In this document: piece after piece, positions 5,578-34,322 of the stretch
Layout: every line of letters begins with the position of its first letter
How positions within the stretch are numbered: position 1 is the first letter of the stretch
NCBI GenBank assembly: GCA_938016265.1
Contig: CALLWB010000080.1
Coordinates: 1-34,322 of the forward strand
Length of the DNA: 34,322 nt
DNA from: an uncultured Saprospiraceae bacterium
GTDB lineage: Bacteria > Bacteroidota > Bacteroidia > Chitinophagales > Saprospiraceae
Reading direction: 5' to 3'
The notes under the pieces: generated by a model
What the model was told of the DNA's origin: nothing
What the model saw: only the letters and a program-made list of their open reading frames with translations
Database searches by the model: none
Position numbers and translations under genes: made by a program

Positions 5578-5600
5578 AACTATATATTATTTTTTTTAAA

Positions 5601-16771: not shown

Positions 16772-16808
16772 GCTACCAATCTATTACGCGACTACTAATC
16801 AAACGATT

Positions 16809-16848
16809 GTGAGCAATACCTAACTAAAGGTATTGCTCACTGTTTTTT
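16809..16848 (+). terminator. Strong rho-independent terminator of the SprB-repeat gene
   Basis: A perfect 13-bp stem (16809-16821 with 16828-16840, core GAGCAATACC) and a 6-nt loop are followed by TG and a run of seven T on the plus strand. It lies between two convergent genes, 37 bp after the SprB-repeat stop codon. On the minus strand no T-run follows, so it works mainly for plus-strand transcripts. Confidence 0.92.
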
Positions 16849-16874
16849 TATCTGGCCGTTTTTTGAAAATTTTC

Positions 16875-19800
16875 TTACTTATAATTTGCCTTAACTATTC
16901 GGTGTTCGGAGTGTTGCTTGTTGGAGTTTTCTAGTTGGATAAAATACACTCCGGGAGCAAATTCCGACAGGTCAAATTCAAACGAATTAAACCCGCTCGA
17001 AAGATCTTTTTGCATTACTGCAATTCTTTCACCTAAGGAGGAGAAGACATTCACATTCACATAATCATTTTCTATGGAAGAATAAGTAACAATACTTATC
17101 AATCCTTCCGTTGGATTTGGGTACACCTCATTTTTAGGGTCCTTGTACTTAGAGCCTGTGTTTACTGTCAATACATCACACACGAACTCGGAGGATCCAT
17201 CCAAATCTAACTGAGAAATTTTGTAGTAATAAGTGCTTGCAAAAATAGCTTCAGGATCAGTAAATCTGTAGGTTGTCTGTTCTGTAGTCTCCCCACTACC
17301 ATCTATCCAGGCGATCGACCTATAGTCCAATCCATCTTCACTGCGATGCAAATAAAAGCCTTTGTTGTCAATTTCGAATTCTGTTGTCCAGGTTAAATCA
17401 ATTCCTTTTGTAGTAGATTCACCAGAAAAAGAAGAGCACTCTATTGGTAAGACTAAATCATTGCAGAAGAAACTGGCTAAATCGTTGCACATGCAGTTTT
17501 CTTTGCCTAGGCTATTCATCGGTTGTATCGTACTAACCACACCTAATGTTGGATCACAGCTACCCACTACCACCCCACTGAATGTAGCAGTTGCACCAGC
17601 AGCAAGCGGCCCTGGAATAACAATACTTCCAATTGGAGCCCCAGTAGCTGCTCCTGTAGCATCCGCACAAAATACTTCAACATACAAAGAGTCATTCGCT
17701 GGAAGATCGGAACCAGAATTCACAATATCCCCTTCCAATTGGAATGAGGTACCAGCAGGCCATGAGGAATAGAATCCGCATAAATTGTCCAGAGCAAGAT
17801 CTGGTTTTTGAATTTCTATATCAATACTTTTCGACCCAGAAACCACCCCAATTTCAGGGCAGAATCCTCCAGGAGCAGTTGCACAAGCAGGTCCGGGAAC
17901 AGAGATGACATTTTCAAGCAGGATCAACTTTGGTGTAGAACAACCACCATCAGGGGTATTCATCACGTCAATAGAAAACATGACTTGAGAACCATCAGTA
18001 ATTCCTGCTGGATAGGCCATTTTTAACTTAGTAATACCAGAGACGTCTGTTATTGCGTCTATAAGTGTTGGGCAACTTGGAACTGCAGTGGCCGGCATGC
18101 AAGCAAAAGAATTCGCTACATATTCAATCCCTTGTGGAATGGTGATGTAAGCAGTGTCATTCCCAGAAGTGGATCCACCAGTAAACAGTACATCAAACTC
18201 AATAGTTTCTGCATTTGTGCAGCCCTGAAGCGGATCAGAGGTAATTGTATTTATTGTTGAATATGGAGGCGAAACTCCTGCAATATCAATAGGAGGAGTT
18301 ACACTTGTAACCCCATCTCCTAGTGCCGGGCCAGTACATGGCTGATCACCATGAGCAATAAACTGAAATCTTGATCCAGCAAAAAAGCTACAATCTGTAA
18401 TGAACTTCATTTGAACTTTCACATTTCTATCTTCTGGCACCAATGCGTCCTGTGTACCTGGAATCCCATCCATGCTAACTGCAGAATGCTGGTTGATTGC
18501 TATATTCGCTAAAGACCCGTTAATGGTAGCTGGAATGGCTTCCCAGGCGTTGCTGCCCCCTGGATATTCTACGAGTGGATCGCCTGCCAATGTCAACCCT
18601 GTCGCAAGTAAAATATCTAACGATGGATCAACCAGATAAGACAATTGAGAACTATTTAACTCTATCTCATAAAATAAGGTATCGCATAAATTCTGAGCGC
18701 CGATTGGCCATTGCGTTCTATTTATTTGTACTTCTGACTCGACAGGTTTTACTTCCAGAATGGTTTCGGCTGGCGTACAATTTAGAATTGTTGGATCCGA
18801 TGGATAAACGCCACAATCGAAACTTGACAAAACTCTTAACTCATCAGGTTCACAGGATGTATATTCAAACTCAATACGTATTCTATATGTTGTTCCTCCA
18901 GCTAGCAAGTCAGTCAATTGTATCCATTTTCCGTCTGCATAATTGAGCGTCGTTATAGGAATTCCTCCATTATTTAGGTCTAGTACATTGGTTACATTGA
19001 TTCCAGACAACAAATCTTCAAACCCAACCCAGACATATTCCGCATCTCTTGCACCAGTAGTATTTCTGATTTCAAGATCCCAGAACTCTACTGGTTTGGT
19101 TGCGGAGATACAACCTGTTAAATCGGTCACGGAAAGTGAAGGTTGTCGGTTGGTAAAAAATCTGCTTTTTTCTACCAAAACAGGATTGTAACAGCTTGGA
19201 TCATCGAAATCTCCTGCTTCTGTTGTGTAAACTTTATAATCAACATTGCCAGGCACAGAACCACAAGTAGTCATCAGATTGAATGCTACCCAATAACCAG
19301 AGTGCCCGGTAACTATCATATCACCTAATGGCCAATCTCCCGTGTTTACCCAAGTGAGCCTATTCCCTACGATAGTTGGAGGTGGTAAATTAGTAACTAT
19401 TTCATCTCCGGGGTAACCGTCAGCGGGGGTTCCACGTGACCAAAGTTCAGGAGTAACCGAAGGATCAAAAACATCACCAGTGTTTATTACGACTACAAAA
19501 GAGTCGACCTTTGCATATGGTCTTATTTCACCCGGATATATGTCACTTGAACCATGCATAAAACGGTAGGACATCCAATTGGAAAAAGAGGTACAACCAT
19601 TGTTGACACCACCACTTCCTACCCAAAACTCGTATTCTCTTTTGTGAAGATATAGTTCAGATCCCCAGGTATCACAATACATTTCTTCGTTTGTGATTGG
19701 GGCTAAATTGTAATGCTTAAACCTCAAATCTGCCAAGGTGGTGGAGGGGATATTTTCATAGGAAGCGTTTTCCAGAATTTTCACATCAATATACACATCG

Positions 19801-22067: not shown

Positions 22068-22524
22068 TGTTTTGATTTTTTAGATGGTCACTAATTAAAC
22101 TGCAGATAATTGGAATTGCAGGTCAGCATTTTTTACTAAAAACGTGACATTCAAAACATTTTTTCATTTTAACACAGACTAATTCAAGCTGCATTTGAGA
22201 CAAAATTCAGTATCAAAATTATAGCCTTTGGAAATATTCGTATTATAAAAAATTAAATGGTTTTATTTTGGATTGGAGATTAGTGGATTGAAAACGAATG
22301 TCGTAGGGTTGAACCATCATTCGCAATCTGTCAATCGTTTTTGGGATATCGATAGGAAAGTTTGTAGCGGACATCTAAGAAAAGTACAAAAGATATTAAG
22401 TACTAACCTGTATTGATCATTTGTGGTTTGTAGGCATCGGGAGAGGGCGAATGATGATTCGCTCCTACAGCTATAATCTATTCAAAAAGCGATGGAACCG
22501 TCGTGAATGCGTTGTTACTGTCAA
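22068..22524. other. Intergenic region with a REP-like palindrome
   Basis: This gene-free stretch of 457 bp separates the large secreted protein (-) from the rhodanese gene (-). It is AT-rich on its right (upstream of the secreted-protein gene, 22080-22270) and more mixed nearer the rhodanese gene. It carries a short palindrome, GCGAATGATGATTCGC (22447-22462), flanked by GAG/CTCCTAC, of the kind often dispersed in genomes. No promoter matching the Bacteroidota consensus was found for the secreted-protein gene. Confidence 0.55.
22447..22462. repeat. REP-like short palindrome
   Basis: GCGAAT and ATTCGC form a 6-bp inverted repeat around GATG, with partial pairing extending into GAGG and CTCC on the flanks. 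Palindromes of the form 'GGGCGAAT...ATTCGCCC' are commonly dispersed in bacterial genomes. Only one copy is seen in the window, so the repeat status is an inference. Confidence 0.4.
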
Positions 22525-23028
22525 TTAATAGACTTTTTCTCCTTTTTCCAGCCATTGGCCCCACTTTTTATTGTAGGCGTGTACTTTTTGGGTGGTGCCG
22601 TTTTCGTCCACGACTTCGTTGCCTTGGTTGACCCATTCAAAAATACTACCGTACAGGTTGTAGACATTTTTGTATCCTAGTTCTTGCAATTTTTCTCCTA
22701 TTTTTTCACTTCGATAGCCGACTGAACAATAGACTACAATCGTATCGTCTTTAGATAATCCGGCGAGTTTTTCCTTGTCAAAGGACTCATAACCAACACA
22801 TTTTGCATTTTGAAGATGGCTGACGTCGTATTCAGATTCAGGGCGGGCGTCAAGCAATATTGGACTTTCGAGTTCTTTCAATTCTTCGCAGGTGATATAG
22901 GGTACGGTTTGGTCCAACAGTCCATCCAGCATTTGCTCGAAAGAAACGTTTTCACTTTTCTGAGCGATTCCAGAACATCCCATCATTCCGACAAAAAGAG
23001 TTAACAACAAGTACTTCGCGTGATTCAT
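22525..23028 (-). CDS. Rhodanese-domain lipoprotein
   Basis: This 167-residue protein has a lipoprotein signal (LLLTLFVGMMGC, Cys18) and a single rhodanese domain (about 42-135). The features are the CH2A-like segment LLDARPESEYDVSHLQNA (58-75) and the active-site loop CSVGYRS with catalytic Cys101, followed by GYKNVYNLYGSIFEWVNQG. Rhodanese domains transfer sulfane sulfur or sense redox state. The lipid anchor places this one in the periplasm or at a membrane. It is divergent from the FAD oxidoreductase/polyferredoxin pair, with a 201-bp shared upstream region. That suggests, without proving, a link to periplasmic sulfur or redox chemistry. Confidence 0.9.
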   Translation of the reverse strand: MNHAKYLLLTLFVGMMGCSGIAQKSENVSFEQMLDGLLDQTVPYITCEELKELESPILLDARPESEYDVSHLQNAKCVGYESFDKEKLAGLSKDDTIVVYCSVGYRSEKIGEKLQELGYKNVYNLYGSIFEWVNQGNEVVDENGTTQKVHAYNKKWGQWLEKGEKVY

Positions 23029-23074
23029 ATTGAACTTTTTAAAAATTGTTTTGTAAACTACGATTGTGATAAAT

Positions 23075-23082
23075 CAAAGATA
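23075..23082 (-). promoter_or_regulatory. Candidate -7 promoter box for the rhodanese gene
   Basis: On the minus strand the box reads TATCTTTG, an exact match to the Bacteroidota -7 consensus, 46 bp upstream of the rhodanese start codon. No good TTG is found at the expected -33 distance, so this is a partial match. Confidence 0.45.
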
Positions 23083-23229
23083 AGGCCATTGTTGGAAAGA
23101 TGCACGATTGGGTGTGTCAATCCAACGACATCCTAATCATATTATTTACCAAAAAATGTACATTTACATAGAAAATAAGTTAATTAGTCCCTTCGGACCT
23201 GGTTTTTTAATGATTAATACATTGAGAAT

Positions 23230-24570
23230 ATGCACATAGCAATAATTGGAAATGGAATAAGCGGAGTCACTGCAGCCAGACACCTACGAAAACAAAGTGA
23301 TCACAAGATTACGCTGATTTCAGCCGAAACGGATCATTTTTTTTCGCGGACAGCGCTGATGTATATCTACATGGGGCATATGCGATACAAGGATACTAAG
23401 CCTTACGAAGATTACTTTTGGAGTAAAAACAGAATTGAGCTGCGAAAGGATTATGTAGAACAAATAGATTTCCAGTCTAAGATATTAAATATGAAGGGCG
23501 GAAATTTGAAGTACGACAAACTGATCCTTGCTGTTGGTTCAGCACCCAACAAATTTGGTTGGCCTGGTCAAGATCTCAAAGGCGTTGGTGGACTCTACTC
23601 TTTTCAGGATCTCGAAAATATGGAAGCCTACAGCCCCAATCTAAAACACGCCGTCATTGTTGGTGGTGGGTTGATTGGTATCGAAATGGCGGAGATGTTT
23701 CACAGTCGGCACATTCCTGTCACTTTTCTTGTTCGAGAAGCTAGCTATTGGAATGGCGTCCTCCCGCCTGAAGAGTCCGCAATGATCAACCGTCACATCC
23801 TTGAACACGGTATCGACTTGCGACTAAGCACGGAGCTGAAAGAAATCCTCCCCAACGATAAAGGAGAAGCCACCGCCGTTATAACCAACAAAGAAGAAAA
23901 AATCGATTGTCAGTTTGTAGGACTTACCGCCGGCGTACATCCAAACATCCGTTTTCTGAAAAACACAACGTTGGAGGTCCAAAAAGGTATTTTGGTCAAC
24001 GAATACCTGGAAACTAACCTGCCTGATGTCTATGCAATAGGAGACTGCGCGCAAGCAGAAAACCCCTTACCTGGAAGACGGCCAATTGAAGCAATCTGGT
24101 ATACAGGACGAATGATGGGAGAAACCGTCGCCTACAATATTTGCGGGAAGAAGATTGCCTACGACCCAGGATTCTGGTTCAACTCGGCCAAGTTTTTTGA
24201 TATCGAATATCAAGTCTACGGCACAATGCCCGCAAAATTACCGGAGGACCACGAAACCCTCTATTGGGAGCACACCGACGGCAAAAAGAGCATTCGAATT
24301 AATTATAATAAAAACACCCAGCAAGTAGAAGGTTTTAACTTGATGGGTGTCCGATTTAGAAGCGAGGTTTGCGAAAAATGGATCAAGGAAAAAACGGCCA
24401 TCAAAGAGGTACTGCAAAACCTTGGACTGGCCAATTTCGATCCTGAATTTTATCCGCAATTTGAGAAGGATGTAGTCGCAACCTACAACAATAAAACTGG
24501 GGAAAATTTAAGGTTAAAACCCAATCAGAAACTGAACGCAGTGCAGCGTTTTCTTAAATCATTTTCGTAG
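23230..24570 (+). CDS. FAD/NAD(P)-dependent oxidoreductase (pyridine nucleotide-disulfide reductase fold)
   Basis: This 446-residue flavoprotein has the N-terminal FAD Rossmann motif IIGNGISG (residues 5-12). The second Rossmann motif for NAD(P)H is VGGGLIG (144-150), and the FAD-closing motif YAIGDCA lies at 268-274. There is no CxxxxC redox pair near the N-terminus, so it is not a disulfide reductase. It more closely resembles ferredoxin/rubredoxin reductases and the flavin part of NirB-type proteins. A C-terminal extension (about 330-446) is less typical. The next gene starts 24 bp downstream and encodes a membrane iron-sulfur protein. The pair probably moves electrons from NAD(P)H to iron-sulfur centres at the membrane (inference). 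Confidence 0.87.
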   Translation: MHIAIIGNGISGVTAARHLRKQSDHKITLISAETDHFFSRTALMYIYMGHMRYKDTKPYEDYFWSKNRIELRKDYVEQIDFQSKILNMKGGNLKYDKLILAVGSAPNKFGWPGQDLKGVGGLYSFQDLENMEAYSPNLKHAVIVGGGLIGIEMAEMFHSRHIPVTFLVREASYWNGVLPPEESAMINRHILEHGIDLRLSTELKEILPNDKGEATAVITNKEEKIDCQFVGLTAGVHPNIRFLKNTTLEVQKGILVNEYLETNLPDVYAIGDCAQAENPLPGRRPIEAIWYTGRMMGETVAYNICGKKIAYDPGFWFNSAKFFDIEYQVYGTMPAKLPEDHETLYWEHTDGKKSIRINYNKNTQQVEGFNLMGVRFRSEVCEKWIKEKTAIKEVLQNLGLANFDPEFYPQFEKDVVATYNNKTGENLRLKPNQKLNAVQRFLKSFS

Positions 24571-24594
24571 GAAATTCCATCAAAAAATAGTTCT

Positions 24595-25968
24595 ATGAGT
24601 CAGGTAAATAGTAGTCTAGCCCTTTCTAATCCTCAGCAACTTGAAATAAGTGCACTTCAAAAAGTAGCCCTTGCTTTGGTTGGACTTGGGTTGTTGGTTT
24701 TAATCATCGCTTTTGCTGGTGCTCAGGTTGTTTCGTCCTGGGTGATGTTTCGAATTTCATTTTTTGGGATTGCTATGGGCAGTCTTTTATACACGCAACA
24801 GGAGTACAAAAACAAACCGGAAGGGATTAAAAACAATGGTGTCTTTTTTAAAAGCATTTCCTCGGGGGGCGTTGTTGCGTGGATATTGGGTATTGTGGTC
24901 ACGGGCTTTTATGTTTGCTTGTATTGGTTTCCTGCCTTGTTGGAAGGGATCATTCGAATGCATGATGGGTTGAGTATGATCTTGCGTGGAAAAATTGCGG
25001 ACCAATGGTTTGTCTATGGGACGTTCTATACGGTGGCGGTATTGTTGATGGGAATAAAATTCATTTACAAATATCGGCACAACAAATATCAGACAATTCG
25101 GACGCTTTCCGTGATGTTTTTCCAACTTGGGTTTGCTTATTTGCTTCCTGCTTTTTTGGCGGCGATGAATCAACCGGAGGAGTATTTCTCTTACTTCTGG
25201 CCTTTAGATTCTTATGCTTTACGTCCTGATTGGATTGGTAGTAAAGCAGGGATTGGCAATTTTGGGTATTTTGTAATCATCACTGGATTTTTATTGCCGT
25301 TTGTCGTGACGCCCATTCTTACTTATTTGTATGGTAAGCGGTGGTACTGCTCTTGGGTTTGTGGTTGTGGGGGTTTGGCAGAAACGGCAGGCGATCCTTT
25401 CCGACAACTGTCCGACAAATCAATGAAAGCCTGGAAAATTGAACGATGGATGATTTACTCTGTGCTAGTCGCAATAACCTTATTGACCGTCTTACTTTGG
25501 GTCAATCATCAAACGCATAATAACTTGCTGGGCGGTATTACAGAGCCGTATAAAAAGACCTATGGTTTTCTGATCGCTCAAATGTTTTCTGGAGTGATTG
25601 GTGTTGGGTTTTATCCGATCATGGGGAGTCGTGTTTGGTGTCGGTTTGGCTGTCCGATGGCGGCGATACTTGGTTTACAGCAGAAATTCTTTTCTCGGTT
25701 TCGTATTACTACGAATGGAGGGCAGTGTATTTCTTGTGGTAATTGTTCGACGTATTGTGAGATGGGGATTGATGTGCGGCATTATGCGCAGCGGGGGCAG
25801 AATATTGTCCGGGCGTCTTGTGTTGGTTGTGGGATCTGTGCGGCGGTTTGTCCGCGTGGGGTGCTGAAGTTGGAGAATGGATCGGTGGATATTGATCAGC
25901 GGACGGAGGAGTTGAAGACGATTCATATTTCTGCGGATGAAGTGGGGATTTTGGAAATGGATGCGTAG
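24595..25968 (+). CDS. Membrane polyferredoxin, NapH/NosR/RdxA-like 4Fe-4S protein
   Basis: This 457-residue protein has about five to six membrane segments (around 25-45, 95-118, 140-158, 172-190, 225-245, 288-305). Two membrane-facing cysteine motifs are present: CSWVCGCGG (252-260) and CRFGCP (349-354). Two ferredoxin-type clusters follow at the C-terminus: CISCGNCSTYC (378-388) and CVGCGICAAVCP (409-420). CxxxCGCGG/CxxxCP-type motifs are typical of the NapH, NosR, RdxA and CcoG families, which carry electrons from quinol or flavoproteins to periplasmic reductases or to copper-centre assembly. It is co-transcribed with the FAD/NAD oxidoreductase. No nitrate, nitrous oxide or cytochrome oxidase genes are near, so the final electron acceptor is unknown. 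Confidence 0.87.
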   Translation: MSQVNSSLALSNPQQLEISALQKVALALVGLGLLVLIIAFAGAQVVSSWVMFRISFFGIAMGSLLYTQQEYKNKPEGIKNNGVFFKSISSGGVVAWILGIVVTGFYVCLYWFPALLEGIIRMHDGLSMILRGKIADQWFVYGTFYTVAVLLMGIKFIYKYRHNKYQTIRTLSVMFFQLGFAYLLPAFLAAMNQPEEYFSYFWPLDSYALRPDWIGSKAGIGNFGYFVIITGFLLPFVVTPILTYLYGKRWYCSWVCGCGGLAETAGDPFRQLSDKSMKAWKIERWMIYSVLVAITLLTVLLWVNHQTHNNLLGGITEPYKKTYGFLIAQMFSGVIGVGFYPIMGSRVWCRFGCPMAAILGLQQKFFSRFRITTNGGQCISCGNCSTYCEMGIDVRHYAQRGQNIVRASCVGCGICAAVCPRGVLKLENGSVDIDQRTEELKTIHISADEVGILEMDA

Positions 25969-26553
25969 GAGAGTTGGTCTAAAAAAATTAGATTACCCTC
26001 AAACAACGTTATTTTGCCCTATTTTAAGTGCTTGTTTTATTAAGTTAAAGCAATCGCAGCGGGTATGTTTATTTTTCCCAATCAATGAAAAAACGACCAG
26101 AAGCCGATCCAACGGTGTGCCAGTCCAGACAAAAAATCTTGTTAAAATAAATCGGCAGCCGACGCTGTTGTCCCTCAACACTATTTCAACGGACTCCCAC
26201 TCGCTTGCTACAAAAGTAGTCTGTAGAACACCGAGGATAATCGGGCAGATTTAGAAAAATAAAACAAAATCGTTTTGGGGACGTTTAAAAAATAGGCGAG
26301 AAAAATTTAATGTGAAGATTGGATCCCACAGGTTTCGCCGTCGCGGTTTCTTGACTTTTTGAACAGTTGTTCAAAACGCTGCGGGATGCTGAAGAAATCT
26401 GGCAGCGCAGCGGTCTATTTTTCGGCACATGCTTTGCTTTATATAGGGGTGAAGTTTTAAAGCAAAAAGAAGGAGACATTTTAAACCTGAAGTTTTGAAG
26501 GACTCTTATTTAAAATTGTCGTATTTTCGTAATCCACATCAAATTGATACAAC
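25969..26553. other. Intergenic region with palindromes, no gene
   Basis: This stretch of 585 bp has no supportable coding sequence. It contains a perfect operator-like inverted repeat (26357-26376) and a second hairpin from CGCTGC/GCAGCG about 30 bp further on (around 26378-26409). TATTTTCG at about 26521-26528 is a near-match to a -7 promoter box for the first thioredoxin-like gene, with a poorly spaced -33 box. Confidence 0.5.
26357..26376. promoter_or_regulatory. Perfect 20-bp inverted repeat, possible operator
   Basis: TTTTGAACA and TGTTCAAAA are exact reverse complements around a 2-bp centre. GAACnnnnGTTC is a form often bound by TetR-family repressors. No regulator gene of that kind lies in the window. 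It sits about 180 bp upstream of the first thioredoxin-like gene, far for a simple promoter operator. Confidence 0.35.
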
Positions 26554-27729
26554 ATGAGATTATTAGTACTTATAGGAATTATGGCCTTTTCAGGGCTTTT
26601 TACTACCGCTCAGGCAGAGGGAATTGAGTTTTTTAAGGGCACTTGGAAAGAGGCGCTTGCGGAAGCTGAACGGACGAACAAACTGGTATTTGTAGACGCT
26701 TACACTTCTTGGTGTGGGCCTTGCAAACGAATGGCAAAAGAGATTTTCCCGCTGAAAGATGTTGGGGAGTTTTACAATGCCAACTTTATCAACATGAAAA
26801 TGGATATGGAAAAAGGCGAAGGCCGGACAGTCCGATCTAAGTACAATGTCAATGCCTTTCCTACGTTTTTGTTTGTCGACCATTCTGGCAAGTTGCAGTA
26901 CATGTCTAAAGGAGGAAAACCTGCCGACCGATTTATCGGAATGGGGAAAACAGCATTAACGAAAGTTGACTATACTGGCGACTATACTGACCGATATGAG
27001 GAAGGCGAACGTGATGAGGAATTACTCTACAATTATGCGTACGCCTTAATGAAGTCCAATAAACCGTCCTTGAAAGTGGCCAATGAATACTTGCAGACGC
27101 AAGAGGACAAAACCTCCGACAAAAATCTAAAATTTATTATGGATTTGGCGACAGAAAGTGATTCGAGAATTTTTACGATGTTTATGAAGAATCGGGCTAA
27201 AATTGAAGCGATGAGAGATGGTGCGTCTGTCAATGATAAGATCGAAGCTGCCTGCAAAAAAACAGTCGACAAAGCTATCGAATATAAGTCTACGGATTTA
27301 TTAGCGGAAGCGAAAGAAAATATGAACCAACACTATCCCTCACAAGCCGAAGCATTTGGGGTAGACAGCGACATGGCCTTCTTCAAGGCGACAGGCGATC
27401 AGGCAAACTACCTGAAGGTTTGTGACAAATACTTGAAGAAAACGGCTAAAAACAATGCTGCAGCGCATAATAGAATTGCGAGTTCACTCCTTTCCGATTT
27501 TGGAGAAGACAGCAAGGCGATGGCGAAGGCGGAAAGCTGGGCAAAAAAGGCAGCCGAGTTTGGCGGACTAAGTGAATACAACATGACGTACGCCAATATC
27601 CTGTATGCCAATGGCAAAAAACAACAGGCCCTCAATGCGGCTAAAACAGCGGCAGATTTAGCAAAAGCGGAAAACAAAAAACAAGGAAAGATCATGGCTT
27701 TCATCAAAAAGATCGAAAGCGAATTATAA
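26554..27729 (+). CDS. Secreted thioredoxin-like protein with C-terminal helical repeats (copy 1)
   Basis: This 391-residue protein has a signal peptide (LLVLIGIMAFSGLFTTAQA, about 1-21) and a thioredoxin-like domain (about 24-135). The active site is WCGPCK with Cys54 and Cys57, and the cis-proline is in NAFPTF (Pro103). Lys/Ala-rich helical, TPR-like segments follow from about 150 to the end. The family acts in the periplasm as a disulfide reductase or isomerase, or as a sensor; substrates are unknown. The adjacent downstream gene encodes a paralogue, and the two align without gaps through about residue 110. The WCGPC motif is intact, so both are predicted to be redox-active. Confidence 0.9.
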   Translation: MRLLVLIGIMAFSGLFTTAQAEGIEFFKGTWKEALAEAERTNKLVFVDAYTSWCGPCKRMAKEIFPLKDVGEFYNANFINMKMDMEKGEGRTVRSKYNVNAFPTFLFVDHSGKLQYMSKGGKPADRFIGMGKTALTKVDYTGDYTDRYEEGERDEELLYNYAYALMKSNKPSLKVANEYLQTQEDKTSDKNLKFIMDLATESDSRIFTMFMKNRAKIEAMRDGASVNDKIEAACKKTVDKAIEYKSTDLLAEAKENMNQHYPSQAEAFGVDSDMAFFKATGDQANYLKVCDKYLKKTAKNNAAAHNRIASSLLSDFGEDSKAMAKAESWAKKAAEFGGLSEYNMTYANILYANGKKQQALNAAKTAADLAKAENKKQGKIMAFIKKIESEL

Positions 27730-27758
27730 TCGTCCGTACCTTTCGTTATTCCCATTTT

Positions 27759-27774
27759 GGTCGTAATTGCGACC
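27759..27774. repeat. 16-bp near-palindrome between the two thioredoxin-like genes
   Basis: GGTCGTAATTGCGACC is a perfect palindrome except for one T/G wobble pair, and TATTTTT follows on the plus strand. It may act as a weak terminator or processing hairpin between the paralogues. Similar GGTCGCAATT-type palindromes are, to my knowledge, recurrent in Bacteroidota, but only one copy is here. Confidence 0.45.
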
Positions 27775-27807
27775 TATTTTTCAAAAATAATGATACAAAT
27801 TACCTTC

Positions 27808-28980
27808 ATGAAAAATTACATAGTGATACTCCTGTGTGCCTTGTTTATAACAAGTTTGCAGGCGCAAGACAACGGCATTCAATTTGACAAAAACAAATGG
27901 GAATCGGTATTGGCAAAAGCCAAAAAAGAAAATAAATTGGTGTTTGTGGACGCTTACGCTGTGTGGTGCGGACCTTGCAAAAAGATCGCTAAAGAGGTGT
28001 TTCCTCAAGAGGAAGTCGGCTCGTTTTTCAACAAAAATTTTGTGAATGTAAAGATGGATATGGAGCGCGGTGAAGGCTTGGCCCTGGCGTCTGCTTATGC
28101 GGTGACGGCTTATCCGACTTTTTTGTTTGTGAATGGTAATGGGGATCTTGTACATAAGGGACTTGGCTATCATAGCAAGGAAGAATTTTTGGAGTTAGGC
28201 GCTGCAGCTATCGATCCTGCGAGACAACTCGTTGCCTTGACGATGCAGTATGAGGAGGGCAGTCGGGAGGAGTTGCTACTCAAAAACTATACAAAAGCAA
28301 AGTACGATGCGGGGGCGAAGGACTACGGCGATGTGGCTTTGGAGTACTTGAATAGCATTGGTGAGGGGCATTGGCACACCAAGGAGAATATGACATTTTT
28401 ACTGTCTTATGTTAGTAATGTTTACTCAGCGCCTTATAACTATTTGTTGGCCAACCGAGGGCAATTTGATGATGCATTTACCAAGCAGGTAGTGGACCGT
28501 CGGATTGCTGGAATGATCAAAAATGAGATTTATCGTGGTTCTGGAAAGTCGATTTCTTTGGAAGATATTGATGAATTGTATTTGAATGGTCTGCCTGAAC
28601 AGTCGGGTCAGCTATCGGGTAAGTTCAGAATGGATTACTATGAAAGAGCAGGTGATGCTACAAAATACGCAGAAGCGACGACTACCTATTTTGAGAAATT
28701 TCCATCTGACAACTGGAGTGAGTTGAATCAGTATGCGTGGTCTTTTTATGAGAATTTTGAGGATAGGGATTTGTTGGAGACGGCACTGGGCTGGGCACAA
28801 AAGTCGGTTAGTATTGACAATAATTTTTATAATAATGATACGGTTGCTGCGCTCCACTATAAGCTAGGGAATAAGAAGGAGGCAAAGAAGGCCGCTAAAC
28901 TAGCGATTAAGCAGGCTAAAGCTGGCGGGGAGTCGTTTGAGGAGACGGCAGATTTGTTGCGGCGGATTAAGGCGATGTAG
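27808..28980 (+). CDS. Secreted thioredoxin-like protein with C-terminal helical repeats (copy 2)
   Basis: I chose the start at 27808 (390 residues) because it places the signal peptide MKNYIVILLCALFITSLQAQ at the N-terminus. The open frame extends 17 codons upstream, to 27757, without any signal-like feature. WCGPCK carries Cys54 and Cys57, and TAYPTF carries Pro103, at the same residue numbers as in the upstream copy. Helical repeats fill about 150-390, ending in a basic amphipathic stretch. The intergenic gap to copy 1 is 78 bp. The two genes probably arose by tandem duplication, with the C-terminal halves diverging more than the thioredoxin domain. The helical half may bind a partner or substrate (inference). 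Confidence 0.88.
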   Translation: MKNYIVILLCALFITSLQAQDNGIQFDKNKWESVLAKAKKENKLVFVDAYAVWCGPCKKIAKEVFPQEEVGSFFNKNFVNVKMDMERGEGLALASAYAVTAYPTFLFVNGNGDLVHKGLGYHSKEEFLELGAAAIDPARQLVALTMQYEEGSREELLLKNYTKAKYDAGAKDYGDVALEYLNSIGEGHWHTKENMTFLLSYVSNVYSAPYNYLLANRGQFDDAFTKQVVDRRIAGMIKNEIYRGSGKSISLEDIDELYLNGLPEQSGQLSGKFRMDYYERAGDATKYAEATTTYFEKFPSDNWSELNQYAWSFYENFEDRDLLETALGWAQKSVSIDNNFYNNDTVAALHYKLGNKKEAKKAAKLAIKQAKAGGESFEETADLLRRIKAM

Positions 28981-28997
28981 GGGGAGTTGGAGATTGA

Positions 28998-29030
28998 TTT
29001 TGGGGTGATTACTATCCGTTTGGTTGGTCT
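28998..29030 (+). pseudogene. Rhs core remnant upstream of the orphan tip start codon
   Basis: The reading frame of the Rhs tip continues upstream of its ATG for eleven codons that read FWGDYYPFGWS. This is the conserved Rhs-core segment (xxDYYPFGxxMPGR) and it is cut off by an in-frame TGA at 28995-28997. The conserved core is therefore truncated at this point, and no N-terminal Rhs shell is present in the window. Confidence 0.7.
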
Positions 29031-29933
29031 ATGCCGGGGAGGAAATATCAACAGGGAAGTTATCGATTTGGCTTTAATGGTACTGAAAAAGTTCTTGAAT
29101 TAGGAGAGGGACATAACACTACATTTTTTAGAGAACAAGACACAAGAATTGGAAGGTGGTGGAGTTTTGATCCAAGACCAAACCTGTCGGTTTCTCCTTA
29201 TGCGATGATGGAAGGTAATCCAATTATGTATTCAGATATGTTAGGAGATACAATTATTGGGGATCAGGGAGGAATGGCTATTGTTAATTCATTCATAGAT
29301 TATTCAGAATCAGTAATAAAGAAGAGCGATACAGAAATAAGAAAACAATTTGAGGTTTCAACTAGCGAAGAAGTAGCCCAGATTAGAAGCCTATACCAAA
29401 CACAGCTAGATAAAATTAAGCAACTTAAAGAGAGTGAGAAAGTAACTGTTTATGCTAAAACTATTTCTAGGGAAGAGATGACAAAATTAGTCGGTCCTCT
29501 TGTTGGTGCTTTTACTCAATACGATACGGAATTAAATAGGATTGAAGTTGTTACTACGCCGAATCTGTGGCCTGGTAGAGCCCTTGGTGCACATGAATTT
29601 GAACATGCTTTTCAGTATTTAATTGGAGAACTTAGTTTTATAGATAATGGAAGTAGGTATGCTCATGCAGGTATTCTACATGATCTTGATGATGAAGTAA
29701 ACGGAGCAAAAGTAGAGTATCTTTATAACGGTAGTTACAATGTAAAGACCCATATCTTATCAGGCTTGATTAATGAAGATTGGTTGATGTCAGAGCGAGG
29801 GATTTATTCATCTCCTCCAGGGCCAATAAGTTATAATACGATCAATCCTCAAACAGGACAAACTTATTTGGAAATTATGCGAAATGCAAACATGAATCAA
29901 GTGCGCCAACTACATTTTTACAATATACCTTAG
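29031..29933 (+). CDS. Orphan Rhs core tip with putative zinc-metallopeptidase toxin domain
   Basis: Residues 1-72 match the end of an Rhs repeat-associated core: MPGRKYQQGSYRFGFNGTEK, RIGRWWSFDPRP and SPYAMMEGNPIMYSDMLGD. In full Rhs proteins this is where the C-terminal toxin is joined. The remaining 228 residues are the variable part and include HEFEH (188-192), a zincin HExxH motif, within GAHEFEHAFQYLIG. DDEVNGAKVEY follows 30 residues later and could supply the third zinc ligand (E222). A metallopeptidase toxin is therefore inferred. The gene has no signal peptide or Rhs shell of its own, so it looks like a displaced toxin cassette that needs recombination with a full rhs gene. The candidate immunity gene starts 13 bp downstream. 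Confidence 0.78.
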   Translation: MPGRKYQQGSYRFGFNGTEKVLELGEGHNTTFFREQDTRIGRWWSFDPRPNLSVSPYAMMEGNPIMYSDMLGDTIIGDQGGMAIVNSFIDYSESVIKKSDTEIRKQFEVSTSEEVAQIRSLYQTQLDKIKQLKESEKVTVYAKTISREEMTKLVGPLVGAFTQYDTELNRIEVVTTPNLWPGRALGAHEFEHAFQYLIGELSFIDNGSRYAHAGILHDLDDEVNGAKVEYLYNGSYNVKTHILSGLINEDWLMSERGIYSSPPGPISYNTINPQTGQTYLEIMRNANMNQVRQLHFYNIP

Positions 29934-29946
29934 ACCAAGAAGAACA

Positions 29947-30582
29947 ATGAAAATAACATTAACTGATGTCGTGGTTGTTTTTTTATTGGTATTTACATTT
30001 AGTTGTAAAGTTCAGCTTAAAAACATTTACAACAAAACATATAACAACTCTAATCAAAGCTATTTTGAAAGAATAACTTTTCAAGAGAATAATAGGTATA
30101 CCTTTGAAGTAATAACTGACCTACATCGCCAAAAAGGGGCTGGGAATTGGATACGAAAAAATGATACTCTTATCCTTGAAAGCGATTTTCAAAAAGAGGA
30201 CATAAAATTAGCTAGAATCGAAAATTGCAAAACGAACTTAGATTCATTTTCTAGGATAGAAATAAAGAGGAAAGTTGGAAATCATACATACATCTTTAAT
30301 GAGGGAATAATTTTAATTAATGATACCTTAAGAATCCTTAGCGGGAATAAAGTTGAAAAAAAAGATGAGTATACTTCAATGAAGGTTGTTAGCATCCATG
30401 GATTGGCTTCAAAAAATATTCCATTAAGGCTTGATAGAGATACTGTAGCATATCTTTTTGAGCTTCCAATAGGTAATTTATATGCCTATCCGTTTTTCAA
30501 TTTTGATCGATGCTTGCTAAGTACGGATAGTCTTGTGTTTCTTGGTGATAAAAACAGAAGTCCTTTTTATATCGCAAAGTAG
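29947..30582 (+). CDS. Small lipoprotein, candidate immunity protein of the Rhs tip
   Basis: This 211-residue protein has a signal-like N-terminus (DVVVVFLLVFTFSC, candidate lipid-bearing Cys20, with a somewhat atypical lipobox). The body is beta-rich and charged (RITFQENNRYTFEVITD, NDTLILESDF, NDTLRILSGN), as in small periplasmic lipoproteins. I recognise no family. It starts 13 bp after the Rhs toxin tip in the same direction. That is the usual place for a cognate immunity gene, and it is the sole reason for the immunity proposal. Periplasmic anchoring would suit a toxin that acts in the periplasm or on arrival. Confidence 0.55.
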   Translation: MKITLTDVVVVFLLVFTFSCKVQLKNIYNKTYNNSNQSYFERITFQENNRYTFEVITDLHRQKGAGNWIRKNDTLILESDFQKEDIKLARIENCKTNLDSFSRIEIKRKVGNHTYIFNEGIILINDTLRILSGNKVEKKDEYTSMKVVSIHGLASKNIPLRLDRDTVAYLFELPIGNLYAYPFFNFDRCLLSTDSLVFLGDKNRSPFYIAK

Positions 30583-31462: not shown

Positions 31463-31493
31463 TTTAATGTGTGCAGTTATCGTACACATTAAA
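31463..31493. other. Perfect inverted repeat, candidate recombination core or operator
   Basis: TTTAATGTGT (31463-31472) and ACACATTAAA (31484-31493) are exact reverse complements with an 11-bp spacer. The total span of 31 bp (for example 12-7-12) is compatible with a tyrosine-recombinase core site. No T-run follows on either strand, so it is not a terminator. TTAATGTGTG recurs at 32092-32101 inside the structured leader of the ATPase gene. Confidence 0.45.
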
Positions 31494-31579
31494 TTTATGA
31501 CAGTGTGGAGTTATTCCAGCAGCGATCTATTAATTGTGGGGTCTAATTTAGTGAAGAGGACGATTTTTTCTTTTAAATG

Positions 31580-31909
31580 CTATGAATATGCTTGTTTGGC
31601 TTTAAAATCTCTTAATGCCATATCAATCATGTTTAAAACGAACTCTTTGTTTTTATCAGGTAACTCAGAAATAAGTTCTAAGCGATGAATAGCTTTTTTA
31701 TCAAACTCCTGATTAGTTTTTCCAACTAAGAAATCAATACTAATTTCTAGTTCATCAGCAATTTTTGTTACGACATCAATAGATGGTTTAATATCACCTC
31801 TTTCGTACCGACCTACAACATCTCCAGATGTTCCGATTTTTTTTCCTAGTGCAGCTTGAGAAAGTCCTCTTTTCTTTCTTAGCAACATCATATTATCTCC
31901 AAAATTCAT
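31580..31909 (-). CDS. XRE-family transcriptional regulator
   Basis: This 109-residue protein has an N-terminal HTH of the Cro/C1 type (about 5-60): MLLRKKRGLSQAALGKKIGT, VVGRYERGDIKPSIDVVTKIA and LEISIDFLVG. The C-terminal helix-rich tail (about 68-109) probably mediates dimerisation. It is divergent from the ATPase gene, and the two promoters lie within about 75 bp of each other. It most likely represses its own promoter and that of the ATPase-recombinase operon, as in phage-like and integrative elements (inference). The 251 bp between the genes contains both promoters and the structured leader. Confidence 0.88.
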   Translation of the reverse strand: MNFGDNMMLLRKKRGLSQAALGKKIGTSGDVVGRYERGDIKPSIDVVTKIADELEISIDFLVGKTNQEFDKKAIHRLELISELPDKNKEFVLNMIDMALRDFKAKQAYS

Positions 31910-31950
31910 AATGATAGGTATTGAAAATGACTGTTATTGCAGCGTTTTGA

Positions 31951-31981
31951 CAAATATACTTGAATTAAAGGTCATAAACAA
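31951..31981 (-). promoter_or_regulatory. Promoter of the XRE regulator
   Basis: On the minus strand TTG (31981-31979) is followed after 20 nt by TATATTTG (31958-31951), an exact match to the Bacteroidota consensus. The start codon is 42 bp downstream of the -7 box. Confidence 0.7.
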
Positions 31982-31992
31982 TAAACATAGTG

Positions 31993-32024
31993 CTTGTTAT
32001 ATTAAGATATATAATGTAGATTTG
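31993..32024 (+). promoter_or_regulatory. Promoter of the ATPase-recombinase operon
   Basis: CTTG (31993-31996) is followed after 20 nt by TAGATTTG (32017-32024), a good match to the Bacteroidota consensus. It lies back to back with the XRE promoter, their -33 boxes about 12 bp apart. Transcription from here gives a 5' leader of about 130 nt that contains the structured element at 32063-32145. Confidence 0.65.
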
Positions 32025-32062
32025 TGAATAATCAGTCTTAAAAAACAATTTTTCAAGAAAAC

Positions 32063-32145
32063 AAGACACCAGCATGAAAGCCGACTATGAATTAATGTGT
32101 GGGCAAAGCACAAATGACTAGCTAAGGTCGGGGAGCTGGTGTCTT
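32063..32145 (+). ncRNA. Structured 5' leader element (long nested hairpin)
   Basis: AAGACACCAGC (32063-32073) pairs perfectly with GCTGGTGTCTT (32135-32145), an 11-bp outer stem. Inside, CCGAC (32081-32085) pairs with GTCGG (32127-32131), and an apical stem TGTGT (32096-32100) pairs with GCACA (32108-32112) around the loop GGGCAAA. It ends 15 bp before the ATPase start codon and follows a consensus promoter, so it should be in the mRNA leader. It could be a regulatory RNA, a stable small RNA or a folded DNA recombination site; the sequence does not decide. Confidence 0.55.
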
Positions 32146-32160
32146 ATATTTTAAATCGCT

Positions 32161-33711
32161 ATGAGCAAAGATACGTTGAATACGGTAAATCCAGAACACT
32201 TGACTTGGTCGGTAGCCTTGGACAAAAAACGATTGTTGGAAGTTGCGGTATTGGGTGGCGTGAGATTGGAAGGACTGGACAGAATGCGAGTGACGTTGAA
32301 AATACAATTAGGAGCACAGGTGATTAGACATGCGTTTGACTTGTATAATGATACTCAGTTGGAGCGGTTTGTTCGGAAAGCTGCGGAGCGGTTGGAGGTT
32401 GGGACGAGTGTTTTACAACATGTATTTAGTCAGTTGACGGAGCAGCTGGAGACCTACAGAATCCAAGCACTGAAAGACAAGGAAATGAAGACGATTACGA
32501 AGAAGACACTAAGCAATAAGGAAGTAGAACAGGCATTGAAATACTTGACAGATAAGCAGTTGATGAAGCGGACAGGCAAGGACATTGGAGCAAGCGGAGT
32601 TGTAGGAGAAGAAGTGAATCGACTATTGATGTACATCATTTTTACTAGCAGAAAAACAAGCAGACCGCTCCACGTGATCAGCTTCGGAAGTAGCGGAACA
32701 GGGAAAACGCATCTACAAGAAAGAGTGGGCGAACTGATGCCAGAAGAAGACAGAATCGAGTTGACCAGTTTAAGTGAAAATGCGTTCTACTATTTTGGCC
32801 AACGAGAACTACAAAACAAGCTGATTTTAATAGAAGATCTGGACGGAGCAGAGAATGTACTTTATCCGCTTAGAGAATTAATGAGTAAGAAGCGAATCAG
32901 TAAAACCATCGCCCACAAGAACAAACGAGGAGAAACAAAGACGCTCCATTTAGTAGTTGAAGGCCCCGTGAGTGTCGCAGGCTGCACCACCAAAGAAAAA
33001 GTATACGAGGACAACGCTAATCGCTCGTTCCTACTCTACTTGGATGAAAGTGAAGCACAAGACAGACGGATCATGACCCACCAGAAGAAACTCAGCGCTG
33101 GAAAAGTGAATCTGGAGCAAGAAATTAACATCAAAAATCTCCTACAAAACTGCCAGCGGATCCTCCGCCCGATAGCCGTTAGAAATCCGTTTGCGGAAGA
33201 ACTGGAATTACCAAAAGAAGTCTTCAAACCAAGGAGAACAAACGGCCATTACCTAGCACTAATCGAGGCAGTTACGTTCTATCACCAACACCAAAGAAAG
33301 GAACAAGCAGACGAGCAAACAGGCGAATTATACATCGAGACCACAATCGAAGACATAGCAGAAACGAACGAACTAATCAAGGAGGTATTACTAAGGAAAT
33401 CGGACGAGTTACCAGGAGCATGCAGAAGATATTTGGAGCGGTTGAAAGACTACTTGAAAACCAAGGAGAAAAACGAGTTTACGAACTTAGAAATCAGGAA
33501 GGAGTTGCGCGTGAATGCACAGAGCCAAAAGCGGTACAACCTAGCATTAAGAGAGAGTTATTTTATTAGAGTCAAATCAGGAACGAAAGCCACAGGATAC
33601 CAGTACGAACTAGTGAATGAAGCGGAGTATAAAAGTCTGAAAACCAGTATTGATAAGTTGCTAGATGATACGTTGGCTAATCTCAAAAAATCAAATTTAG
33701 TGGTTCAGTAG
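32161..33711 (+). CDS. P-loop ATPase of a tyrosine-recombinase mobile element
   Basis: This 516-residue protein has an N-terminal region (about 1-165) of unknown fold. An ATPase domain follows with Walker A GSSGTGKT (176-183), Walker B LILIEDLDG (221-229), a sensor-like GPVSVAGCTT (268-277) and a candidate arginine finger in DNANRSF (284-290). The helical C-terminal part (about 330-516) is charged and may bind DNA. The core resembles ATPase segments of CHC2/TOPRIM primase-like proteins found beside integrases, but no zinc finger or TOPRIM motif is visible here. The start at 32161 lies 15 bp after the leader hairpin. The recombinase gene begins 110 bp downstream. A helicase/loader or recombination-accessory role is an inference. 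Confidence 0.72.
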   Translation: MSKDTLNTVNPEHLTWSVALDKKRLLEVAVLGGVRLEGLDRMRVTLKIQLGAQVIRHAFDLYNDTQLERFVRKAAERLEVGTSVLQHVFSQLTEQLETYRIQALKDKEMKTITKKTLSNKEVEQALKYLTDKQLMKRTGKDIGASGVVGEEVNRLLMYIIFTSRKTSRPLHVISFGSSGTGKTHLQERVGELMPEEDRIELTSLSENAFYYFGQRELQNKLILIEDLDGAENVLYPLRELMSKKRISKTIAHKNKRGETKTLHLVVEGPVSVAGCTTKEKVYEDNANRSFLLYLDESEAQDRRIMTHQKKLSAGKVNLEQEINIKNLLQNCQRILRPIAVRNPFAEELELPKEVFKPRRTNGHYLALIEAVTFYHQHQRKEQADEQTGELYIETTIEDIAETNELIKEVLLRKSDELPGACRRYLERLKDYLKTKEKNEFTNLEIRKELRVNAQSQKRYNLALRESYFIRVKSGTKATGYQYELVNEAEYKSLKTSIDKLLDDTLANLKKSNLVVQ

Positions 33712-33791
33712 TTCATAGTGGTTCACTAGCAAAAGTGAACCACTTAAGTAGAAGAAAACCAGTTGATTAGTCCTAGTGGTTCAGTGGTTCA
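33698..33791 (+). repeat. TAGTGGTTCA repeat cluster before the recombinase gene
   Basis: AGTGGTTCA or TAGTGGTTCA occurs at 33698-33707 (inside the end of the ATPase gene), 33716-33725, 33774-33783 and 33783-33791, with an inverted copy at 33735-33744. Clustered short direct and inverted copies beside a recombinase gene are typical of arm-type or core recombinase sites, or of iterons. They also overlap the intergenic region where the recombinase promoter or attenuation signals would lie. Confidence 0.65.
33717..33744. other. Dif-like 28-bp perfect inverted repeat, candidate recombination site
   Basis: AGTGGTTCACT and AGTGAACCACT are exact 11-bp reverse complements around a 6-bp centre AGCAAA. 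The 11-6-11 layout is that of XerCD-type core sites. It lies 5 bp after the ATPase stop codon and 77 bp before the recombinase start. It has no T-run after it, which argues against a terminator. Confidence 0.55.
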
Positions 33792-33821
33792 CCGAAAAGA
33801 CATAAGCGCATCGAAAACGGC

Positions 33822-34322
33822 ATGAAAAAACTACTCCTAAAAACAACAAGTTACCTGTATATCGAAGCAAGTTTTACTGAATGGCTCGACATATTAGGCT
33901 ATAGCAAACAAGCAATTTACAACCTACCAACTCATGTCCGCGAGTTCCTATGGTGGTTGGAGCAAAGACAAATCACGACCTTATCCCAAGTAAATCAGTT
34001 GACCGTTGACGAGTATTACGAATGGTTGAAAACTAGGAAGAATCATAGACTTGGCGGAGGGCTAAGCAGTAGTTACATCAACAAACACAGGCAAGCGTTG
34101 CTCTTGTTTTTTAGTTATCTGCACCAAGCAAACCACGCTGATTTACAACGAGTGATATTAAAAAGTGAGTTAGCCGATAGTGCGAAAATCGAAGTATTAA
34201 CAAGGAAAGAAATCAAGGAGCTCTACGAGCAAACCCGAGGACATAATCTAGGGAAAAGAGCAGAAGTATTAAACAGCAGAGACCGAGCAATGTTAGCGGT
34301 TTTTTATGGTTGCGGACTTCGA
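33822..34322 (+). CDS. Tyrosine recombinase/integrase, 3' truncated by the window edge
   Basis: The first 167 residues are present. An N-terminal SAM-like, phage-integrase-type DNA-binding domain (about 5-115) includes YSKQAIYNLPTHVREFLWWL and SYINKHRQALLLFFSYL. The start of the catalytic domain follows: VLTRKEIKELYEQTR, then RDRAMLAVFYGCGLR, which carries the first catalytic arginine at the last codon of the window. The remaining catalytic residues (HxxR and Tyr) lie beyond the edge. It follows the ATPase in the same direction and probably belongs to the same operon. I chose the ATG at 33822 because translation from there has no interruption to the end. Confidence 0.85.
   Translation, partial: MKKLLLKTTSYLYIEASFTEWLDILGYSKQAIYNLPTHVREFLWWLEQRQITTLSQVNQLTVDEYYEWLKTRKNHRLGGGLSSSYINKHRQALLLFFSYLHQANHADLQRVILKSELADSAKIEVLTRKEIKELYEQTRGHNLGKRAEVLNSRDRAMLAVFYGCGLR

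What the first reader, a model, noticed from the sequence alone, without database searches (positions are those of the whole stretch)
31580..34322. Compact XRE / leader RNA / ATPase / tyrosine recombinase module without a recognised family
A divergent XRE repressor, a consensus promoter, a 130-nt leader with a long nested hairpin, a stand-alone P-loop ATPase and a tyrosine recombinase form one unit. The ATPase core looks like that of integrase-associated primase-like proteins, but it lacks zinc finger and TOPRIM motifs. The pairing of an ATPase with a tyrosine recombinase plus a conserved leader could be a transposon or integrative element type that has not been characterised.
Basis: partly seen in the sequence, partly recalled or inferred. 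Interest (0 to 1): 0.75.

Follow-up and report, generated by a model that had tools for sequence, protein, structure and literature searches.

The report
Mobile element that swaps toxin tips
The genes at the end of this window belong to a family of small mobile DNA elements that appear to insert at fixed spots inside the genes of bacterial weapon proteins (Rhs, CdiA), replacing the toxic tip and its matching immunity gene with new ones, which could explain how bacteria re-arm against their neighbours.

Summary
The parts are real: divergent RstR-type XRE gene, Bacteroidota promoter, stand-alone P-loop ATPase, tyrosine recombinase. Corrections: the leader hairpin is private to this copy, the recombinase is cut by the contig end, and the unit starts about 2.5 kb further left, at an Rhs core motif followed by an Rhs tip and a putative immunity gene (29007-30582). 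In 76 related loci XRE-ATPase-Tyr1-Tyr2 is nearly invariant and an Rhs core lies upstream in 44 of 46 loci with enough flank; often a second, cut-off Rhs core with an unrelated tip follows downstream. A longer form (CHC2/TOPRIM/ATPase plus XerC) sits at hemagglutinin/cdiA and rhs genes of Proteobacteria. E. coli alleles with and without it place it to the base, at the codons of the VENN motif of cdiA. Best reading: integrative elements whose attachment site is the carrier/tip junction of polymorphic toxins; integration replaces toxin plus immunity and pushes the old pair downstream. That would supply the recombinase the C-terminal-displacement model lacked. Recombination itself is inferred, not shown. 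The window's copy lies outside any rhs frame (ectopic or a relic), and its right end is not visible.

The parts
29007..29039 (+). Putative left attachment site: GATTACTATCCG TTTGG..., codons for DYYPFGWSMPGR of the Rhs core
   Evidence: Aligned with left cores of relatives; 26 bases after the stop of a thioredoxin-like gene, 3 open codons upstream
29007..29249 (+). Rhs core segment
   Evidence: Profile of Rhs cores from these loci, E 9e-27
29031..29933 (+). Rhs tip ORF (300 aa), putative toxin; no Pfam family
29947..30582 (+). Putative immunity gene (211 aa), by position only; no Pfam family
   Evidence: position as in relatives
31580..31909 (-). XRE repressor gene, RstR family
31994..32024 (+). 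Bacteroidota-type promoter TTG-N20-TAGATTTG
32063..32145 (+). Leader hairpin, 11-bp perfect arms; private to this copy
32161..33711 (+). P-loop ATPase, short form without CHC2/TOPRIM
33822..34322 (+). Tyrosine recombinase Tyr1, first 167 residues, cut by the contig end

Best explanation
The window holds the left part of a small integrative element (relatives: 5.8-8.9 kb) that trades the tips of polymorphic toxins. SHOWN by comparison: the element consists of [end of the carrier's core - toxin tip - immunity gene - XRE(-) - ATPase or CHC2/TOPRIM/ATPase - tyrosine recombinase(s) - optional cargo - right end]; it sits at a fixed coding site at the carrier/tip junction (several Rhs-core motifs in Bacteroidota; VENN in CdiA and DDPIGL in Rhs of E. 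coli); the incoming tip continues the carrier's frame; the displaced core and tip follow the right end behind stop codons; copies stack head to tail; natural element-free alleles exist. INFERRED: the recombinase (Tyr1; in Bacteroidota with a degenerate partner Tyr2) excises the element as a circle and integrates it by recombining a short core in the element with the same core in an rhs or cdiA gene; the XRE protein represses the recombination operon; the ATPase helps replicate the circle or load the recombinase; displaced pairs are a silent magazine that excision can restore. The window's copy belongs to this family but lies behind a thioredoxin-like gene, not in an rhs frame: an ectopic insertion or a relic.
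For: Conserved architecture: XRE 65 of 66, Tyr1 66 of 69, Tyr2 63 of 65, upstream Rhs core 44 of 46 loci with enough flank. Right-hand cores: 33 of 33 behind a stop, 30 within 45 codons; 24 of 58 left cores in frames open for at least 150 codons. Of 25 comparable tip pairs 21 are unrelated though the cores are 40-94% identical, 4 are identical tandem copies. Direct repeats beginning inside the rhs frame, also in finished plasmids. Evenly drawn sample: 12 of 395 genomes, 5 with two copies 5.9-8.5 kb apart; of the 10 genomes not seen before, 7 have an Rhs core on the left, 1 on the right only, 2 none. E. coli C10 against element-free Bongo: both flanks align and overlap by 25 bases coding GKNAVENN. 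The displaced tip occurs attached to cdiA elsewhere: all 23 listed rows other than C10 and C11 start at the same base, 22 annotated cdiA. ZYB39 has two identical copies, period 7,782 bp. A 1,359-bp cassette with the same right end but no recombinase is the active tip in one strain and an orphan in another. Tyr1 keeps R, K, H, R, H, Y in 68 of 68.
Against: No recombination or excised circle was observed. The window's copy is not in an rhs frame, its right end and Tyr2 are not visible, and no close Tyr2 was found in the genome (best 25% identity). 2 of 46 loci with enough flank lack the upstream core (L040, L070), 2 of 10 newly sampled genomes have no Rhs core, Leptospira plasmids carry the XRE-CHC2-Tyr-Tyr set without a toxin, Providencia has no labelled Rhs/CdiA gene beside it. 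16 of 46 loci show no downstream core in the 5 kb held. cdiA is annotated as frameshifted in C10 and C11 and the CHC2 gene in GXU-23-25-310 and A20. 5 of 21 orphan VENN junctions lack the right-end signature. The 76 loci are not independent: several come from one genome or overlap. Toxicity of the window tip is untested.
Confidence: 0.82

Rival explanations
1. An ordinary genomic island that uses rhs or cdiA as landing site and restores the broken 3' end, as islands do in tRNA genes; toxin change is a by-product.
For: Tyrosine recombinase, displaced 3' fragment, element-borne replacement end.
Against: The replacement is not a restoration: 21 of 25 comparable tip pairs are unrelated, and an immunity-like gene travels with the tip. 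Cassettes with only tip, immunity and right end exist.
Confidence: 0.08
2. Tips are exchanged by RecA-type homologous recombination between conserved cores (Jackson model) and the XRE/ATPase/recombinase block is a hitchhiker in the array.
For: Cores are homologous; some orphan fragments keep longer stretches of cdiA upstream of VENN, e.g. L117:27154.
Against: Fixed junctions; only 25 bases shared at the C10 site, 13 of them identical in the element's right end; a 152-base right end shared between full elements and cassettes; constant unit lengths in tandem.
Confidence: 0.08
3. A phage satellite or defective phage (XRE repressor, primase-like protein, integrase) that happens to use toxin genes as sites.
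For: RstR-type repressor; CHC2/TOPRIM long form; ORF6N cargo in one copy.
Against: No relative among viral contigs in one scan; in 50,697 phage records only 7 spindle-shaped-virus matches covering 27-31% of the query. I recognised no capsid or packaging gene in the copies whose ORFs I printed, but did not run these ORFs through a phage library.
Confidence: 0.05
4. The repeats and displaced cores are assembly artefacts of repetitive rhs genes.
For: Many draft contigs end inside the element, the window included.
Against: The same arrangement in finished plasmids and complete chromosomes.
Confidence: 0.02

Closest known systems
C-terminal displacement of rhs genes (Jackson 2009, PMC2935791; passages seen)
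   Same: Old tips end up in silent arrays downstream; circular intermediates proposed
   Different: [quoted passage not shown] here a recombinase travels with the tip and the junction is a fixed short site
cdiA-CT/cdiI orphan modules bounded by VENN (Poole 2011, PMC3150448; passages seen)
   Same: Modules run from one VENN sequence to the next; toxin plus immunity move together
   Different: No recombinase or integrase is mentioned in the main text (0 occurrences of integrase); here the VENN codons are the element's site
Integrons and their cassettes (recalled)
   Same: Tyrosine recombinase, stacked cassettes, promoterless ones silent
   Different: Recombinase travels inside the element; site is coding sequence of the target and the product is a fused protein; no attC-like structure was established
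Islands in tRNA genes (Islander, PMC4383910; listing and abstract start only)
   Same: Target gene split and regenerated, displaced fragment marks the end
   Different: Here the regenerated end is an unrelated toxin domain with its own immunity gene
XerC/D genes near polyimmunity loci (Zhang 2012, PMC3482391, passages) and integrase-like genes near Rhs loci of bee gut bacteria (Steele 2017, PMC5727410, passages)
   Same: Recombinase genes seen close to toxin or immunity arrays
   Different: No element, boundaries or site were described in the passages seen

Membership tests
Tyrosine-recombinase integrative element | Integrase with catalytic R-K-H-R-H-Y (residue set recalled) | tested here: met
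   Tyr1 of relatives 68 of 68 at all six; the window copy itself is cut before most of them
Tyrosine-recombinase integrative element | Fixed insertion site with natural empty alleles | tested here: met
   E. coli C10 against Bongo; not tested for the window copy
Tyrosine-recombinase integrative element | Excised circle / integration activity | not testable with these tools
   Only hints: a contig with 134-base identical ends (L025)
Integrative and conjugative/mobilizable element | Relaxase or transfer genes in the element | tested here: inconclusive
   None recognised in the copies whose ORFs were printed; no family search was made for them
Rhs polymorphic toxin tip | Rhs core before a variable C-terminal domain | tested here: met
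   Core 29007-29249
Rhs polymorphic toxin tip | Fused to an Rhs carrier with repeats | tested here: not met
   3 open codons upstream in the window; met in relatives
Rhs polymorphic toxin tip | Toxic, neutralised by the neighbour gene | not testable with these tools
   No Pfam match for tip or neighbour
DnaG-like primase | CHC2 zinc finger and TOPRIM domain | tested here: not met
   Absent in the window protein; present in long relatives L063 and L117
Integron | attC-like folded cassette sites | not tested
   Only the window leader stem was examined; it is not conserved

The most novel reading that the evidence does not exclude
This element family is a general engine of toxin-tip exchange in Rhs, CdiA and other polymorphic toxins across phyla: the well-known junction motifs (VENN, Rhs-core motifs) are attachment sites of its recombinases, orphan tip arrays are integron-like magazines written by it, and tip cassettes without a recombinase are moved in trans.
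Probability: 0.55. Interest if true: 0.95.

Novelty: new variant of a known kind. Interest (0 to 1): 0.87.

Why it matters
How polymorphic toxins change their C-terminal toxin together with its immunity gene has been open since displacement arrays were described: the 2009 model lacked a recombinase and the 2011 work saw modules bounded exactly by VENN. If a dedicated recombinase does it, the question becomes testable in a laboratory strain with a harmless reporter, junction motifs become predictable attachment sites, and orphan arrays can be read as a history of insertions. It would also be a class of mobile element that pays its host with a new weapon and the matching shield in one step.

Tried and rejected
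Leader RNA as a conserved part or a folded recombination site: rejected; Rfam gave two matches, both far below the gathering scores.

Plasmid or phage identity: tblastn in plasmids found 28 records and led to the Proteobacterial long form; phages gave 7 spindle-shaped-virus matches; the viral-contig scan gave no relative.

Solved structures: no convincing relative of the ATPase (best E 0.09).

The window's left flank: genus relatives match the thioredoxin-like genes at 67-71% identity and in part only, so ectopic insertion against loss of the rhs gene stays open.

Left against right open-frame length as a bare statistic (Mann-Whitney p 0.0025) is weak, because many left cores are interior copies of arrays or lie at contig edges; I rely on individual junctions. 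Two notebook statements are too strong: entry 7 says every orphan junction has the right-end signature (it is 16 of 21), and entry 5 counts about 55 further rhs insertions (these are genomes with a match; only L121, L123 and L124 were inspected).
Full report
WHAT IS THERE. The finding's coordinates hold an RstR-type XRE gene (31580-31909, minus), a Bacteroidota promoter (31994-32024), a leader with a real hairpin (32063-32145), a 516-aa P-loop ATPase (32161-33711) and the first 167 residues of a tyrosine recombinase that runs off the contig (33822-34322). The window is an entire contig, C80 of 146. No second copy of the ATPase, the recombinase part or the leader was found in the genome.

THE UNIT IS LONGER THAN REPORTED. 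A scan of one genome per species with the ATPase gave 88 relatives, of which the best 80 were kept as 76 loci; 74 of the 76 record titles are Bacteroidota, one is a Micavibrio and one a Verrucomicrobia MAG. Divergent XRE, ATPase and recombinase were visible at once; a second recombinase follows the first. Upstream of the XRE gene comes an Rhs C-terminal tip, starting at motifs such as DYYPFGM..MPGR..YRYGFNGKE, with a small gene behind it. The window has the same: Rhs core from 29007, tip ORF 29031-29933, a 211-aa ORF 29947-30582.

COUNTS. All 76 loci were examined; denominators are those with enough flank: divergent XRE 65 of 66; Tyr1 66 of 69 (missed L069, L074, L081); Tyr2 63 of 65 (missed L069, L081; in L081 both recombinases are present beside a broken ATPase); Rhs core upstream 44 of 46 (missed L040, L070); Rhs core downstream 30 of 46. 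The loci are not independent: several come from one genome or overlap. An Rhs core like the window's is rare elsewhere: 3 matches in the 7.44-Mb own genome, the window's included.

JUNCTIONS. 24 of 58 left cores lie in frames open for at least 150 codons; the others lie at contig edges or behind a stop, several behind another copy. All 33 nearest right cores are behind a stop, 30 within 45 codons. At the DYYPFGM site the left consensus is gATTA.TAtCC (40 ends) and the right consensus gATTAcTtc.C after a run of A (25 ends), so the exchange lies at or just beyond these codons. Other copies use other Rhs-core motifs: YRYGFNGKEKD (L013, L108), NHLGNVLVT (L107), WYDYGARF (L063, L068).

TIPS ARE REPLACED, NOT RESTORED. 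28 loci have a core on both sides; in 3 (L025, L027, L056) the right tip is too short to compare. Of 25 compared, 4 pairs are identical (tandem copies) and 21 show no blastp match although their cores are 40-94% identical.

EVENLY DRAWN SAMPLE. Of 395 genomes of the phylum 12 carry the ATPase, 5 of them twice, 5.9-8.5 kb apart on one strand. Of the 10 new ones 7 have an Rhs core on the left (L130-L133, L135-L137), 1 on the right only (L129), 2 none (L127, L134). Six left cores lie in frames open for 874-1604 codons; right cores lie behind stops within 40 codons. L127 stands beside a 2120-codon frame; in L134 a 6.6-kb repeat begins inside a 262-codon frame.

BEYOND BACTEROIDOTA. Of 28 plasmid records with a relative I opened ten. 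Aureispira and Aureibacter (Bacteroidota) show full rhs, small gene, XRE, TOPRIM or CHC2 protein, recombinase and next gene, rhs tip and again the same small gene and XRE; repeats, cut by the stretch ends at 5.7 and 4.7 kb, begin inside the rhs frame. P. aeruginosa, two Enterobacter and a Paraburkholderia plasmid have hemagglutinin-type genes or labelled toxin tips with XRE, CHC2/TOPRIM protein and XerC, Janthinobacterium an FG-GAP protein, Caballeronia an unannotated Rhs frame, Providencia no labelled Rhs/CdiA gene, Leptospira no toxin but ParA/ParB. Long forms carry CHC2 and TOPRIM before the shared ATPase, so the window's form looks like a shortened one.

WITH AND WITHOUT, IN E. COLI. Relatives of the Enterobacter CHC2 gene occur in 59 of 5426 genomes, 4 with at least 80% of the query. 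In these 4 the element is at cdiA; in GXU-23-25-310 one more module stands in front. cdiA is annotated as frameshifted in C10 and C11. C10 (L117) and element-free Bongo (L122) align on both sides: 4318-11307 with 5022-12025 and 19064-30194 with 12001-23130. The sides overlap by 25 bases of Bongo, CGGGAAGAATGCTGTTGAGAATAAC, coding GKNAVENN; the element's right end carries an imperfect copy, one base longer, sharing TGTTGAGAATAAC, and the cdiA frame meets stops there. The displaced tip is found in 44 genomes, 35 with at least 80% of the query; of 25 listed rows two are C10 and C11, and the other 23 begin at the same query base, 22 annotated as cdiA; 19 rows were not listed. ZYB39 has two identical copies, period 7,782 bp. 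A20, R12 and D6 have the same kind of element in an rhs gene, with the displaced core resuming at DDPIGL.

CASSETTES WITHOUT RECOMBINASE. In GXU-23-25-310 the active tip and its colicin-type immunity gene are followed by a 152-base copy of the element's right end (98.7%) and then the next core: a 1,359-bp cassette without XRE, CHC2 protein or XerC. A cassette of the same length with the same immunity protein is an orphan in SY038; a similar one of 1,415 bp is in CEC15. The right end occurs in 10 of 5426 genomes. In five loci (L117, L118, L119, L138, L139), leaving out the first site of cdiA itself, 16 of 21 core 13-mers (last base C or T) are preceded by TTGT as at the element's right end, 2 by TAGT, 3 otherwise; L120 and L122 share most of L117's array and were not counted.

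MECHANISM. Shown: architecture, site, frame, displacement, stacking, empty alleles. Inferred: Tyr1/XerC makes the exchange; Tyr2 is an accessory, since at the positions of the catalytic set (recalled) it keeps the second R, second H and Y in 64 of 66 but the first R in 11, K in 7 and first H in 6; XRE represses the operon whose promoter is conserved; the ATPase acts in replication of the circle or in recombination. Spread between cells may rely on plasmids, transformation or transduction.

THE WINDOW'S COPY. Its core begins 26 bases after the stop of a thioredoxin-like gene with 3 open codons upstream, so the tip cannot be made here as part of an Rhs carrier. Rhs fragments with the same motif lie on contigs C75 and C59; a same-genus genome has XRE and the start of the ATPase at a contig end beside an rhs frame open for 2229 codons (L099).

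LITERATURE. Ten searches of an open-licence library listed no title or abstract start describing this element; lists were capped and most subscription papers are not held. Passages only were read: PMC2935791, PMC3150448, PMC3482391, PMC5727410, PMC13183296 (Rhs tip arrays in Ornithobacterium) and PMC4487195 (not relevant).

VERDICT. A real, widespread unit; in kind a tyrosine-recombinase integrative element, but with a target and a cargo that I found in no described class. New variant of a known kind, interest 0.87.

Noticed in passing
window 31464-31494: A perfect 10-bp inverted repeat TTTAATGTGT / ACACATTAAA with 11 bases between, downstream of the XRE gene; part of it (TTAATGTGTG) recurs inside the leader hairpin.
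   Followed up: no
window 26554-28980: Two neighbouring thioredoxin-like genes directly left of the element; genus relatives match them only in part at 67-71% identity.
   Followed up: partly
L117:18925, L118:11133, L121:13960, L124:12930: The right ends of the cdiA-type and rhs-type E. coli elements share a subterminal stretch GGCGGTAGCGTGTT, perhaps a recombinase arm site.
   Followed up: no
L025:6058-6615, L102:1264-1830: ORF6N-type genes as cargo between Tyr2 and the right end (Pfam for L025; L102 by eye).
   Followed up: partly
L112:6079-11834: Leptospira plasmid with XRE, CHC2 protein and two recombinases followed by ParA/ParB and no toxin: a possible plasmid-type relative of the element.
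   Followed up: no
L030:820-3289: Three Rhs cores about 1.1 kb apart before the element, possibly a run of tip cassettes without recombinase in a Bacteroidota genome.
   Followed up: no
L072:579-7588 and L103:5472-8301: Further copies or remnants whose left Rhs core has no long rhs frame upstream, as in the window.
   Followed up: partly
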